A DNA stretch of 64,000 bases from Panopea generosa (Eukaryota > Mollusca > Bivalvia > Adapedonta > Hiatellidae), in NCBI GenBank assembly GCA_029582155.1, contig CM055911.1, positions 23,246,014 to 23,310,013 of the forward strand. The letters are read 5' to 3'. Shown here in pieces: positions 5,659 to 48,400 of the stretch. Made by a program: the position numbers and the translations under genes. Positions within the stretch are counted from its first letter, which is position 1. Each line of letters opens with the position of its first letter. Under the pieces are notes generated by a model. The model ran no database searches and was not told where the DNA came from. It saw only the letters and a program-made list of their open reading frames with translations.

Positions 5659-6288
5659 TCTAAAATGAGTCTAGCTATGAGCCAGTAGAGAAATGCTTTT
5701 GGGAAAATGAAAACAACAAAGTTTTGTTTTCCAAAGAGTATAATGGTTAGTAACGCTTAACATGTAGCTCAGTTTAAATATAAAATATTGCAATTAATAA
5801 TTTTAGTGTTTTTCATTTAAAATAGTTATGGCCAATGGAGCTGGGACCATTACTTTTGAAAAGTTCATGATCATAAAAAACTGCCATTAGGAAGGAAAAG
5901 ACAACTAGTTTGTAGTTGTTTCAACTTCTTGCCGAAAGTGGAACATTTGTTTAAAAGTTAAATTGTTTTGTAGTTGTTAACTTCAGTTGTAGTTTTGATT
6001 TTGAAATTTGTGTGAAGTAAAACTGTTTTATTAAAATATGTATTTTTTTCCTCCATTTATTCAAGTTGATTTAAGTTTAAAACTAGTCAACTGATGACCA
6101 CCAGATTTTGAAAATGACCCTCAGATTTCAAGTCAGTGGGTCATCAATGTCCCCCAAAAAATTTGAGCTGGAGAAAACACTGATTGTCTATACCTTAAAA
6201 ACTTGCAGGTGACATGTGTTAAAATCAAAAAGATATGCACACTGGAGTTTCTTATTAATTTTGCATTTTGGTTTCAGGACCACCAACC

Positions 6289-42400: not shown

Positions 42401-45400
42401 TTGAATTTGAATTTATGAAGTTGATGTTGTATGGTGTTTAGCGTCGCTTTCAACAATATTTCAGTCATATTGTGACCATATCTTACATGAGACAGTATTC
42501 TAACACTGCCACACTGGAGTCTCATGCCACAGAAACATAGTATGATATCCCACCTAGTCGCAATTCATTGATACCAGGCCGACCAGACCTAGAACTATCC
42601 TTTAAATGCTGAGCGCCAAGCAAGGAAGTTTCTAATACCATTTTTCAAGTCTTAATCAGCTATGTGAAGTTTCTGTTTCATGTCTGCATTCTAAACAGCA
42701 AAAATATATTCAAAAGCAGCAAACAAACATTTAAATTTGTGTTTAACAAATATATACATTTTGAGTATTAACATGATCCTTCTTACATTACAGAAGGGAG
42801 AGCTTCCCTACACATACAGACTGGTCAGTATTGTCAACCACATGGGAATCTCTTCTTCTACAGGTATGTTCATTTGTTCTTATTCCGGCCCATTTCTTTA
42901 CTGTGGGATGTATCATCTTAGTGCGGAATCTCTCACCCAGGATTGGTGGGTCATTGGTTTTTGGAAGGCAAGCAAAGCTCTGACTTCCTTAGCTGTCGTG
43001 CAGCTCTAGCATCTGTTATACACTACTACGTATGGCAGGAACCGCCATATCCGTCTGACCGATAAAAAGTTCACAAGTTTCAAAACGCATTTACCGTAGC
43101 AGAGGACGTATTATACAACAAAAGATTCAAAGTTTTTTAAATATTGCGGATATTTTTCTTTACAAAAGTTCAAAAATACGATACGGGAAGCATACAATTT
43201 GCATGGAAATGCGGAAGAATACACTTCTAAAAAAACGCGGCAATTTTTATTGATAAAAAAATGTTTTACGCATTTACTACTATGCATAGTGACGTCATCT
43301 GGTGAGGGGGGGATATAATTTCTAACACCATTCAACATGTAATCATTAATGGGGCGAAATATTGACATATTTTCGATATAACAACTCGTAGTAATTTTTA
43401 GTGAAATTTTATTCACTTACAGATTGTCCTGTTTTAATTTTGATAGTAAAATAATGAAATAAGGTTCGGGGCTACATTTGTTGTTTATAGAAAAACGCGC
43501 CAATCTGTCATCTTATGCAAGCAGAGTTTAACGGTTAATTAGGTCATCCGACCGTTATGTTTGTTGTGTTTCTGTGTTGTATTTTTTAGATTGATTAAAT
43601 CTAGGTCACGCAACACTGTTTATAATGCTATTTATTGATTATTTATATTGATGATTGAAAGCTATATGAGAATCGAACATAACTCAAGTCAATATATGTG
43701 TAATTCTATAAGTAGGTCATTTTTGTTTTGGTCTAGACAAAGAGTTGTGGATATGTGTTGTATATTCTCGGACAATCAGGAACATTTTGTGCTGAATGTG
43801 TTTCGTTATCCATAAATCATGACTATTGAACTGGAGATATTAAAATTGACTGGAGTTGTACATCACTACTCAATTCTTTCGATTTTGGAGAAACATCAGA
43901 ATATGAAGGTTTGTTTGTGAAGCTTTCATATAGGTTGTTCATGTTGATAACTTTATGTGGAGATGTGGAAAGGAATCCTGGACCACCACGTTACCAGTTT
44001 ACAAAATGTCCTGAAATGGATATTTTCACCAGGGTCATCAAATATTCAGTCAATTTTCACACGGAAGACGGTGTGTACCATGGTGTTTGCATTTTTTCAA
44101 ATGCATTATTAAAACCGTTTAATAGTTACTGTTGGAAAAGTATTGATATGGACTCTGAATTGCATGCAGGAGATTATTTATACAGATACACAAAAGAAAT
44201 ATTAAACACACCACATTCTTTTCTAAATCCCAATGAAATGCCTTTTAACATATCAGAAATCTAACTAAGGTTTTCAATTTTCCGAACCTACATTTTCGAA
44301 TTAACACAAGCAGAGAGCCTTCCCTCGGGCCCTTCAGGCCTTTGATATTTTCATTAAAACCAGACATTGAACAGGACAAATTTGATACCTCATAGAGGGG
44401 AGAGGCATTGATTACACATTTTGTTCCCCTTTTGTCCCATCATTGAGATGTCACATTTTTGTTTGCCTCTCCTCTCCCATTTTTTTGTTCCCATCTTTCC
44501 TATGATGACCGTTTGTTCCCATCGCTCACTTTCCTGTGACATGTGTTTGTCCCTATCTCATGGTCTCCTATGAAGTGTTTGTTACCATCTCTCCTGTTTT
44601 TTTGTGTGTTTGTTCCCATCTCTCCTTTGATATGTGTTTGTTCTAATCTCACTTTGGACATGTGTTTGTTCCCATCTCTCCTGTTTTTTGTGTGTTTGTA
44701 CCCATTTCTCCCATGACATGTGTTTGTTCCCATCTCGTTTATGCTATGTGTTTGTAACCATCTCTCCTATGACATGTGTTTGTATCCATCTCTCCCATGA
44801 CATGTGTTTGCACCCATCTCTCCTATGACATGTTTTTGTTCCCATCACATGTGTTTGTACCTATCTCTCCCATGACCTGTGTTTGTCCCATCTCGCCTTT
44901 GACATGGGTTTGTACCCATCTCTCCCATGACATGTGTTTGTTCCCATTTCTATCATGACATGTGTTTATCATTAACATCATAACATCCTTATGTGTAATA
45001 TATAATAATCATAATGATGTCTTTATTTAGAGAGGGTAAACTCATTATTAAGTTTTATATACATTATAAATCTTATTTTCAATGAGGCCCTCTGCAATTA
45101 ATGACTAGAATAGAATAATGTCAACACAGACAAATATGAATTGTGAAAGTTATGAAAAGTGTAACATGTATTTCTGTTAGAAAACAATAATAATTAATTT
45201 GCAAAATGTAACAATTAGTTCTTCCAACTGTTGTTTTCCGTTACAGAAAACTGATAAATATTGTTATTCTGGAATGGTAAAAGTCATTCGTGAATAAATT
45301 GTGAATTTTTTTACAACAATGGAAATTAACAGTTGTGTAAATTATTGATGATCACAGAACAAGACGCATAGTCACCTTAAGAAAAACTGTTTGGGTGAAT

Positions 45401-48400
45401 TCTTGATTGAATTGGGATTTATTTCCATTTTTTAACACATTTGCTGTTGTATAAAAATACTGTGTCATCCAGATATATAATATGGGGGTTGGTGTTGGAG
45501 AGAACACAGAGAGCTCTACAGTTAATTTGGAAAACATCAACGCGTATGTTTTCCAAAATCACGATTATTTAGTTTTTTCAGTACATAGGTCAGAAAAAGT
45601 ATCAACAGCACTTACTGTGCATTCATTTAAACGTTCTGCCAACCTATAGTCTGTTTTGATACATGTTATAGCCAGTCAGTACACTTAATGAAGAAGTGTA
45701 ACAGTTGCTGTTAGTAAAGCCCAGGGCTGGAAAATTCCACTCGTCCGCTCGCCATGACGAGTGAAGATTTGGTGAGGACGAGTAAGATTTTAGAAAGTGA
45801 CCTTAATATTTCCTTGATTTTTTACTGTTTACTCCATATGCATTTTAACTGGACTCTTCCAAACTCAAAAGCCACACATAGTCAATTTCAATGAATAGAA
45901 ACATTTTACCTATTTATTCTGATAGAGAAGAAAACAGTGCAGAACCTGTTCTGATTGCTCGTTACAAGCAATCAGAACTGGTTCTTCACTGTTTTCAAAA
46001 GCCTTCTATATTAGAGGTGTTCAAAGGTGTCCATATGAAGTAAAGGGTTAAGCATTCAATTAAAAATGTTGGAAAGGGAGGATGAGTAGCTTTTATCAGA
46101 AACTTCAAGCCCTGAAACCGTATGATTTTTGTGTAGTATGTGGTCCAGGTATAGAGTATCTGACACAGGATTGGATTGACTATCTATCCAGAGGTTGTGA
46201 GTTTGAATCTCTCGCCCAGCCAAAGTCTCGGATGATTGATATACAATATTGTGTCTCATTGCCATTTGTCTCTCACAGTGACTCATGTGAGAAATTTATT
46301 GGTTGCTTGTGGAGATAGGGTCCTCCATGGCGAGTGGTCTAAGGCGCCATCACTAGATCACTTACCTCTCATCGCTAAGGTTGTAGGTTCGATTCCGGCT
46401 CACTCCAAATGCTTTATGTGAGAAAGTTTGCAGGTTACTTGCAGAAAGGCAGTGGTTCTACTCAGTCTGAGGTCTTCCTCCACCAGTAAAACTGGATATG
46501 CCATATGTAACCTGGAATGTGTTGAAAATGGCGTTAAACCCCATTAAAAAAACTAAAAAAACAAAAAACTTGTGGAGATGGGAGATGGGCAGTGTTCGAG
46601 TAACCTTCCAGGATCCCAGGAAAAAGCTGTTATGTAAACTGATTGCCTGTTAGCTCTCGACGGCAAAAAAGATGATGCTGAATACGCAAAGAAACAATCC
46701 AAAATGACAGTTTTTGATGGGTGGGGTGGGGTGTGGTGGACATGGTGCGGGGAGTTGTGGAATTTAAATAACACAGATTCAAAGATTTCTTTATCTTACC
46801 AGGTCACTACCTCAGCGATGTGTACGACATGAAGAAGAAGGGATGGTACAGTTTTGATGATTCCCACGTCTCAAAGATAATGGAGTCTGAAGTGCGAACA
46901 AAGAGAGAAAGGAGTGGATATATTTTCTTTTACATGAGCAAGTAAGTTGGAAGGGAATAATATAATGTCGTGTTTGGCGATCAAGGATGTATTTTGTACT
47001 GATTACACCATTATTTGTCCCCCATCTTTTCACTATAATGGTTTTAAATGGTGTCTGTTCCTTGATCTGTTAATTCGTTGCACAAGTTTGATGAAATTTT
47101 GTAAAAAAGGTCATATGAAAAGGAGAATGAAAAGGATGGGGTGAAGGTCATTGTTACTAATAATAGAAAAATGGTTTCCGTTCAATCATTTTAATTTCAT
47201 TTGAGATAGTTTGATGAAATTTGGTATGTAGGTTCAAAACATAGAAAAGAAGCTTCAAATTGATTTGAGATAAATTGGGTTACAGTCAATTTCCAGTGTT
47301 ATTTTTTTCGGCCATATTTATAGCTGTTATTGGGTCTTATTCCCAATGGCAAATGGTATCTTTTTTTCCCAATTGAGTGGTAAAAATCCCCAAATGAAAG
47401 CTTCAAAAATTGTAAATTGAAACTTGCCATAATTCTTTGATAAAATAAACAAAGTTTCCCCATTCTGAATTGAATATGACATTGATTCTTTAATTTAATG
47501 GCCAGAGAAGCAAATATACACATTTTTATGAAGTTGAACAAATATATTTAATGCAAAGTTTTTCCAAAGTTAATGAAAACGCAGCTAAAGTTCCCAATTC
47601 CAAGGGTATGGGTCATCTTCCCAAAATGGTAGGAAAAAAAACACTGATTTCATTTACTAAAAATAGGAAAAGAGGTTTTCCGCTCACAAACTTTAGTTTC
47701 CTTTAAGATATCTTGCTGAAATTTTGAGTATAAGTTCCCAAAATGATTAGGAAGCTTGGGTTGAACTTTCTTGTGTATGCCGATATCACATGCGTGGTAA
47801 GTCAGTCAAATGTCTGAAATTTCTTCTGCCTTGTTAACGCTATAAGATGATTCCCTGTGGTCTAAGGTGTCATCTTAAGATCACCTACCTCTTACTGCTA
47901 AGGTCATAGGTTCAAGTCCCGCTCACTTCAAAATTTTTAAATGTGAGAAAGTTTGCCAGTTACTTGTGTAAGGACGGTGGTTCTGCTCAGGTTCACTCTG
48001 AGGTTTTCCTCCACCTGTAAAACAGGGTATGCCGTCTATAACCTGAAATGTGTTATAAAACACTTTAAAACCGTCTGAAACTTTTCAGTGATGTTTGTGA
48101 TGATGAAATATCAAATTGGACCAGATTATGACAGGTAGAGTGATACTGATCCTATTGGGCCTCGTGTTCTAATTTAAGAAAGTTGTTTCACAATCAATGT
48201 AAAATATGAGGGGCATTCATTAAATATTATTATATTGGTAATAAAATGAAATCAACTTGATAATATTTAGTCCATACCTTCAAACAACTTCCAAAATATG
48301 TATTCATAGTCTTATTGCAAACACCTATCAGACACTTAAAAAACACATTACTGTAAGCGATGCCAGAACTTGGTCTTTCTTTGCTGGCCATATTTTGCTA

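What the first reader, a model, noticed from the sequence alone, without database searches (positions are those of the whole stretch)
43830..44264. 2A-like ribosome-skipping peptide on a short ORF inside USP37 intron 19
GDVERNPGP matches the 2A core exactly, and it follows a hydrophobic stretch as in working 2A peptides. The downstream protein has no domain I can name with confidence; GVCIFSNALL followed by a DMDSELHAGDYLY helix suggests a papain-like protease fold seen in some transposon proteins, but this is a guess. It could be a young or domesticated mobile-element gene, or an unusually short 2A protein.
Basis: partly seen in the sequence, partly recalled or inferred. Interest (0 to 1): 0.75.

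Follow-up and report, generated by a model that had tools for sequence, protein, structure and literature searches.

The report
Relic transposon carrying a 2A peptide
The short reading frame with a virus-like 2A "ribosome-skipping" motif is a decayed piece of a high-copy jumping element sitting in an intron, and it points to a parent DNA transposon family that carried a 2A-like motif in front of a herpes-tegument-like deubiquitinase domain.

Summary
In detail: an open frame at 43830-44264 (+) carries an exact 2A core, GDVERNPGP (43959-43985), after a hydrophobic stretch, inside an intron of a UCH-domain gene. It is not a single gene. It lies in a ~1.39 kb interspersed repeat (42959-44346) with shared ends, T-rich insertion sites and no clear target-site duplication (40 places scored of 932 candidates by DNA, 150 of 1484 by protein). 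Changes among copies show no third-position excess; 10 of 23 copies keep the ORF. A sister subfamily and four larger relatives explain the frame: it is the 2A plus the N-terminal half of a herpes-tegument-like deubiquitinase (VTD, Pfam Herpes_teg_N) from a Helentron rolling-circle transposon, cut off mid-domain. Six loci closely match the missing VTD half; in the four whose N-terminus was read, VTD directly follows a 2A-like core, and at one DUF6570, Rep and PIF1 regions follow in Helentron order within 6.5 kb. So: a dead, HINE-like non-autonomous Helentron derivative. The interesting part is the parent. Whether its 2A works is untested; all four parents read have D where the canonical core has E.

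The parts
42959..44346 (+). whole interspersed element, HINE-like non-autonomous Helentron derivative (~1.39 kb), sense orientation in the host intron; exact ends uncertain by a few T's
   Evidence: of 20 fetched copies 13 align end to end in one piece, 17 show the 5' end and 20 the 3' region; ends placed; empty sites
42963..42969 (+). 5' sub-terminal inverted repeat GGAAGGC, within a small palindrome (GGAAG..GAGC-AAA-GCTC..CTTCC in most copies; window copy carries one change)
   Evidence: copies; fold, z -1.79
44317..44323 (+). 3' sub-terminal inverted repeat GCCTTCC (7 bp match to 5' GGAAGGC)
   Evidence: sequence
44328..44340 (+). 3' terminal hairpin GGCC-CTTCA-GGCC; sister L046 keeps a stem with another loop, L045 has lost it
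   Evidence: (window z -0.38; L046 z -1.25; L045 z 0.13)
43830..44264 (+). 144-codon open frame of the finding (relic coding region)
43938..43958 (+). hydrophobic stretch FMLITLC before the 2A core; 12 nt shorter than in the parents
   Evidence: alignment
43959..43985 (+). 2A/StopGo core GDVERNPGP
44014..44089 (+). segment read out of frame by compensating indels; in sisters L045, L046 and the C5 parent it encodes the stretch up to GRQC with the catalytic Cys
   Evidence: alignment
44090..44261 (+). in-frame remnant of the N-terminal half of a VTD (Herpes_teg_N) deubiquitinase domain: SNALLKPF..W..IDMD..L.AGDYLY..N..P
   Evidence: alignment; sister L046
42864..46802 (+). host intron (gt..ag) between two exons of a UCH-domain (USP37-like) gene
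   Evidence: sequence; UCH E 4.1e-16

Best explanation
The frame is a fossil coding piece inside a high-copy, non-autonomous rolling-circle transposon (HINE-like derivative of a Helentron) that inserted into a host intron. The autonomous ancestor had an ORF beginning with a hydrophobic leader ending in a 2A/StopGo core, followed directly by a herpes-tegument-like deubiquitinase (VTD) domain, with DUF6570, Rep and PIF1-helicase regions downstream. Internal deletion joined the 5' part (leader, 2A, N-half of VTD) to an element 3' end. This short form, presumably mobilised in trans by Rep/helicase of autonomous elements (inferred), spread to at least 150 scored places. Shown: repeat status, ends, empty sites, homology to 2A-VTD relatives, the locally shifted frame, no third-position excess among copies. 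Inferred: trans-mobilisation, and that the ancestral 2A skipped and freed the DUB-bearing product from the leader. In the window copy neither skipping nor protease activity is expected.
For: Repeat: 40 scored of 932 candidate places, 97-100%; 150 of 1484 by protein, 85-100%. Ends shared. Empty sites for L019, L024 (same flanks as L027) and L026 lie in T-rich sequence, with no duplication beyond about 2 bp or T's. Sister minis L045 and L046 read LLCGDVERNPGPPR..GRQC..DMD..L.AGDYLY..NELPSYL; for L046 the best Pfam hit is Herpes_teg_N (E 0.015, below cut-off, profile 3-80 of 183) and the only PDB hit up to E 1 is 8ADD, the zebrafish Helitron VTD (E 0.016). Parent C5:62408846-62409667(-): 274-aa frame with leader, GDVDRNPGP and complete VTD (GRQC..DSH), Herpes_teg_N 2.8e-8, above cut-off; 8ADD 3.4e-5. 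A 2A-like core precedes VTD in L048, L049, L051, L052. Of 20 matches to the VTD C-half, six are close (63-100%). At C16(-) VTD 3845592-3845029, DUF6570 3842620-3842273, Rep 3841725-3841348, PIF1 3839775-3839110 lie in order. L046 aligns with C5 over 1005 columns at 87%. Window-subfamily copies: substitutions by codon position 26/48/34. C5 versus L045 and L046: 26 of 43 and 24 of 44 at position 3, p 0.0002 and 0.003 (the two share C5).
Against: The element's first ~680 bp were not found upstream of the C5 parent's match (about 750 bp read) and no parent's 3' end was read, so shared termini are not shown. Sub-terminal repeats match perfectly over only 7 bp (9 of 11), shorter than described HINEs, and hairpin energies are weak against shuffles. 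The window frame itself has no Pfam hit. Parents are decayed too: C16 stays open but is locally shifted at GRQC, and L051 and L052 shift frame soon after it; only C5 is intact over the part read. Between C5 and C16 there is no third-position excess (8 of 20, p 0.34; C-half 4 of 11), and L045 versus L046 gives 12 of 26 (p 0.12).
Confidence: 0.86

Rival explanations
1. A recently domesticated or still functional short 2A protein gene carried by the element, for example a VTD fragment acting as a dominant-negative or ubiquitin-binding factor.
For: 10 of 23 distinct copies keep the full 144-codon frame and 19 of 23 keep an exact core in some frame. Per copy the ORF differs less from the majority (0.2-2.3%) than the 5' part (1.8-4.0%, misaligned L009 aside).
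Against: The copies were chosen by similarity to the window's ORF, which lowers ORF divergence; the non-coding stretch 43561-43829 is nearly as conserved (1.9%) as the ORF (1.2-1.5%). Codon positions of changes are 26/48/34: if anything an excess at position 2 (chi-square p 0.03), no third-position excess. The catalytic-Cys segment is shifted; no start codon for the leader; both sister copies read have a stop just upstream of 2A.
Confidence: 0.05
2. A fragment of a non-LTR retrotransposon (LINE) with an N-terminal 2A, the known cellular home of 2A sequences.
For: 2A in APE-type non-LTR elements is reported (Odon 2013, seen only as a citation in PMC12846837). A LINE-like frame with a 2A-like remnant (RLIESNPGP) exists in this genome (L043:2709-3239).
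Against: What follows 2A in the intact relative is VTD, not endonuclease/RT; copies share a common 5' end, and no TSD was seen; Rep and PIF1 follow at C16.
Confidence: 0.03
3. A Helentron or other DNA element captured the 2A-VTD exon from elsewhere, so the 2A-VTD is cargo rather than ancestral Helentron coding sequence.
For: Rolling-circle elements capture host sequence (PMC7492417, passage); shared termini with the C16 locus were not tested; of the four parents read only C16 has a Rep match close by (for C15:668407 the nearest on the same strand is 17 kb away, none near the C5 and C20 ones).
Against: VTD lies at the N-terminus of a Helentron ORF in L041 (one ORF with VTD-DUF6570-Rep-PIF1-endonuclease) and upstream of Rep in L044, and is published for Helentrons (PMC9741609); C16 keeps the Helentron order.
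Confidence: 0.06

Closest known systems
HINE / DINE-1 (non-autonomous Helentrons; PMC4067079 and PMC7492417, passages seen)
   Same: defined ends, T-rich target, no clear TSD, sub-terminal inverted repeats and a 3' palindrome, more copies than autonomous partners
   Different: sub-terminal repeats are short here (7 bp perfect); the tandem array found nearby lies outside the element; a relic of a partner's ORF start is retained
Helentron-encoded VTD deubiquitinase (PMC9741609, passages seen; PDB 8ADD)
   Same: same domain by Pfam and PDB sequence matches in the C5 relative, GRQC and DSH (Asp-x-His) present there; VTD Helitrons reported in molluscs among others
   Different: here preceded by a 2A-like core; NPGP does not occur in the main text of that paper; the window copy lacks the C-half and the catalytic-Cys frame
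N-terminal 2A signal sequences of sea urchin NLR proteins (PMC4981915, abstract and passages seen)
   Same: N-terminal leader ending in a 2A core before a larger protein
   Different: host genes of an echinoderm, not a rolling-circle transposon; activity was measured there, not here
2A of APE-type non-LTR retrotransposons (Odon 2013; cited in PMC12846837, not read)
   Same: 2A encoded by a transposon
   Different: retrotransposon versus rolling-circle DNA transposon; downstream protein different

Membership tests
HINE (non-autonomous Helentron) | interspersed family with defined boundaries | tested here: met
HINE (non-autonomous Helentron) | insertion in T-rich/TT sites without target-site duplication | tested here: met
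   paralogous empty sites for L019, L024 (L027 same flanks) and L026; duplication of T's inside T runs cannot be excluded; L011 against L010 weak
HINE (non-autonomous Helentron) | sub-terminal inverted repeats of 11-15 bp | tested here: inconclusive
   GGAAGGC/GCCTTCC 7 bp perfect, 9 of 11 over the longer stretch in most copies (sequence); not among the 25 longest of 94 inverted pairs
[quoted passage not shown]
   stem in window and L046 with different loops; energies weak (z -0.38, -1.25), lost in L045
HINE (non-autonomous Helentron) | sequence and termini shared with an autonomous Helentron | tested here: inconclusive
   87% over 1005 columns between sister L046 and the C5 2A-VTD parent; Helentron domains follow a parent copy at C16; shared termini not read, C-terminal endonuclease at C16 not searched
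VTD / Herpes_teg_N deubiquitinase | profile match | tested here: inconclusive
   window ORF: none; sister L046: E 0.015, below cut-off; C5 parent: 2.8e-8, above cut-off
VTD / Herpes_teg_N deubiquitinase | catalytic Cys and Asp-x-His in the window copy | tested here: not met
   Cys segment out of frame and Asp-x-His half absent; both present in the C5 parent
2A / StopGo peptide | core (D/G/C/N)(V/I)ExNPGP with supportive upstream residues | tested here: met
   window GDVERNPGP with LITLCG upstream, resembling by eye the LLLLSG-like group of PMC12846837; not met by the four parents read, which have DVDRNPGP
2A / StopGo peptide | peptide-bond skipping activity | not testable with these tools
   needs in vitro translation

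The most novel reading that the evidence does not exclude
A Helentron family in this genome used an N-terminal 2A/StopGo leader as part of its expression: a ~60-residue hydrophobic leader is released (or, when skipping fails, stays on and retargets the product) from the VTD deubiquitinase and whatever of the Rep-helicase is translated with it. This would be a 2A element in a rolling-circle DNA transposon, placed exactly before the DUB.
Probability: 0.33. Interest if true: 0.62.

Novelty: new variant of a known kind. Interest (0 to 1): 0.42.

Why it matters
PMC12846837 (passages) describes StopGo/2A as common in RNA viruses and rare in cellular genes; the cellular cases I met are non-LTR retrotransposons (citation only) and sea urchin NLRs. 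A 2A-like core placed before a herpes-tegument-like DUB at the start of a rolling-circle transposon ORF would add another class of mobile element and suggests separate handling of leader and DUB. It also shows that a 2A hit in an animal genome can be a high-copy transposon relic, a caution for 2A surveys. The window copy itself has no expected function.

Tried and rejected
Of 11 VTD N-termini read, 4 carry a 2A-like core (L048, L049, L051, L052) and 7 do not (L041, L044, L047, L050, L053, L054, L055, rechecked for NPG).

Led nowhere: Pfam and PDB searches with the window protein (PDB hits only at E 0.73, a VIP3 toxin, taken as chance); inverted-repeat listing. No structure prediction was made.

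Counts and bias: the 20 long copies were taken from the top of the 40 scored by ORF similarity to the window (two neighbouring C5 places among them skipped), so ORF divergence is underestimated. One search used 19 rows (18 of the 20 plus the window; L021 and L028 fell outside the length limit); L009 is misaligned at its 5' side and was left in, which inflates the first three bins. One search counted 23 distinct places; six duplicate loci were left out; 'intact' there also requires an alignment from the first base. Of the roughly 60 half-domain matches only two (L045, L046) were read.

Literature: two papers hold both 'Helitron' and '2A peptide'; their passages are unrelated mentions; none; 48 papers hold two of four terms, 12 listed, none of these with Helitron; 36 not seen; five listed; none. 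Searches gave no Helitron 2A in what was listed. Odon 2013 and Rao 2025 are not held and may already list such cases.

Full report
The frame 43830-44264 (+) is open over 144 codons and carries GDVERNPGP at 43959-43985. The core occurs once in the six frames of the window and not at all in 60 simulated windows. The frame lies in a gt-ag intron (about 42864-46802, my reading) of a UCH-domain gene, in sense orientation.

It is repetitive. A DNA search of the own genome scored 40 of 932 candidate places, at 97-100%, and a protein search scored 150 of 1484, at 85-100%. Twenty copies with flanks (from the top) define an element of about 1.39 kb, window 42959-44346: 13 of 20 align end to end in one piece, 17 of 20 show the 5' end and all 20 the 3' region. 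Joined flanks find empty sites for L019, L024 (L027 has the same flanks) and L026 in T-rich sequence, without duplication apart from possible T's. Short sub-terminal inverted repeats (GGAAGGC/GCCTTCC) and a small 3' hairpin are present, but energies are not far from shuffles. This anatomy resembles HINEs, the non-autonomous Helentrons (PMC4067079, PMC7492417, passages); the sub-terminal repeats are shorter than described there.

What the frame encodes became clear from relatives in the same genome. Helentrons are present: 81 Helitron_like_N matches, including a young family with a 2098-aa ORF (L041) holding Herpes_teg_N, DUF6570, Helitron_like_N, PIF1 and an endonuclease. A search with its N-terminal domain (150 scored of 344) found, besides its own family, about 60 loci matching only the first half of the domain, many in a frame of roughly 108 aa. 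Two were read (L045, L046): a sister subfamily with GDVERNPGPPR..GRQC..IDMDS.LYAGDYLYR..NELPSYL. For L046 the best Pfam match is Herpes_teg_N (E 0.015, below the cut-off, profile 3-80 of 183) and the only PDB match up to E 1 is 8ADD, the zebrafish Helitron deubiquitinase (E 0.016). The domain is known from Helentrons, molluscs included (PMC9741609, passages).

Of eight further N-termini read, four (L048, L049, L051, L052) carry the same leader and a 2A-like core directly before VTD and four do not; L041, L044 and L047 also do not. At C5 the frame is 274 aa, with leader, GDVDRNPGP and a complete VTD with GRQC and DSH; Herpes_teg_N E 2.8e-8, 8ADD E 3.4e-5. The other three are damaged: C16 is open for 330 aa but locally shifted at GRQC, and L051 and L052 shift soon after it. 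Of 20 matches to the missing C-half, six are close (63-100% identity; all 86 candidates scored), an imbalance as expected between autonomous and non-autonomous forms. At C16 (-) VTD, DUF6570, Rep and PIF1 follow in order between 3845592 and 3839110; at C15 the same order exists with a gap of 16 kb after VTD; none was seen near the C5 and C20 copies. The stretch between VTD and DUF6570 at C16 was not read.

The alignment shows how the window frame arose. The three mini sequences compared lack 11 nt before the 2A core relative to the four parents; the window lacks one more, which restores the frame. A 1-nt deletion near 44013 and a net 2-nt loss after 44089 put 44014-44089 out of frame, destroying GRQC. 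About 370 bp of the parent, including the leader's ATG, are missing. So the 144-codon frame is a by-product of compensating indels.

Selection: between the C5 parent and the sisters, changes gather at third positions (26 of 43 and 24 of 44; p 0.0002 and 0.003; the tests share C5), so the 2A-VTD frame was probably under constraint before or during the split. L045 versus L046 gives 12 of 26 (p 0.12), C5 versus C16 8 of 20 (p 0.34). Among copies of the window subfamily the pattern is 26/48/34, no third-position excess. Ten of 23 distinct copies keep the frame and 19 of 23 an exact core, as young neutral copies may. The ORF differs less among copies than the 5' part, but the copies were picked by ORF similarity and the adjoining non-coding stretch 43561-43829 is nearly as conserved.

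Against a working 2A: all four parents read have D at the position where nearly all 2A cores have E (p14 in PMC12846837, passages; there H is active, Q partly active, D not listed among likely variants), and three of four have R instead of the favoured G before the core. The minis keep the canonical GDVE. Activity was not tested. Whether a 2A in a rolling-circle transposon is already in print could not be settled: the searches listed no paper linking the two (two papers with both words are unrelated), but Odon 2013 and Rao 2025 are not held.

Noticed in passing
window 44605-44967: A 28-bp minisatellite (about 13 copies, unit TGTGTTTGTTCCCATCTCTCCTATGACA) lies ~260 bp downstream of the element's 3' end, outside it.
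   Followed up: no
window 46315-46550: Another dispersed repeat with 69-82% matches in several fetched loci (L009, L012, L013, L014, L023, L025, L026); the sequence contains a GGTTCGATTCCGGCTC stretch like a tRNA B box (recalled), perhaps a SINE.
   Followed up: no
window 42420-42653: Dispersed repeat with 75-84% matches in six fetched loci (L015, L020, L021, L023, L024, L027).
   Followed up: no
L043:2709-3239 (+): A LINE-like endonuclease frame (by eye) starting with a degenerate 2A remnant, RLIESNPGP: the known LINE type of 2A seems to exist in the same genome.
   Followed up: partly
L041:1106-7399 and L041:8318-8857: A young Helentron family with an intact 2098-aa VTD-DUF6570-Rep-PIF1-endonuclease ORF in many near-identical copies, followed by an ORF that looks RPA-like to me (recalled, not searched).
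   Followed up: partly
L019:4381-4651 and 6044-6255: A copy of the element inserted into a ~41-bp tandem repeat, giving several empty-site units side by side.
   Followed up: partly
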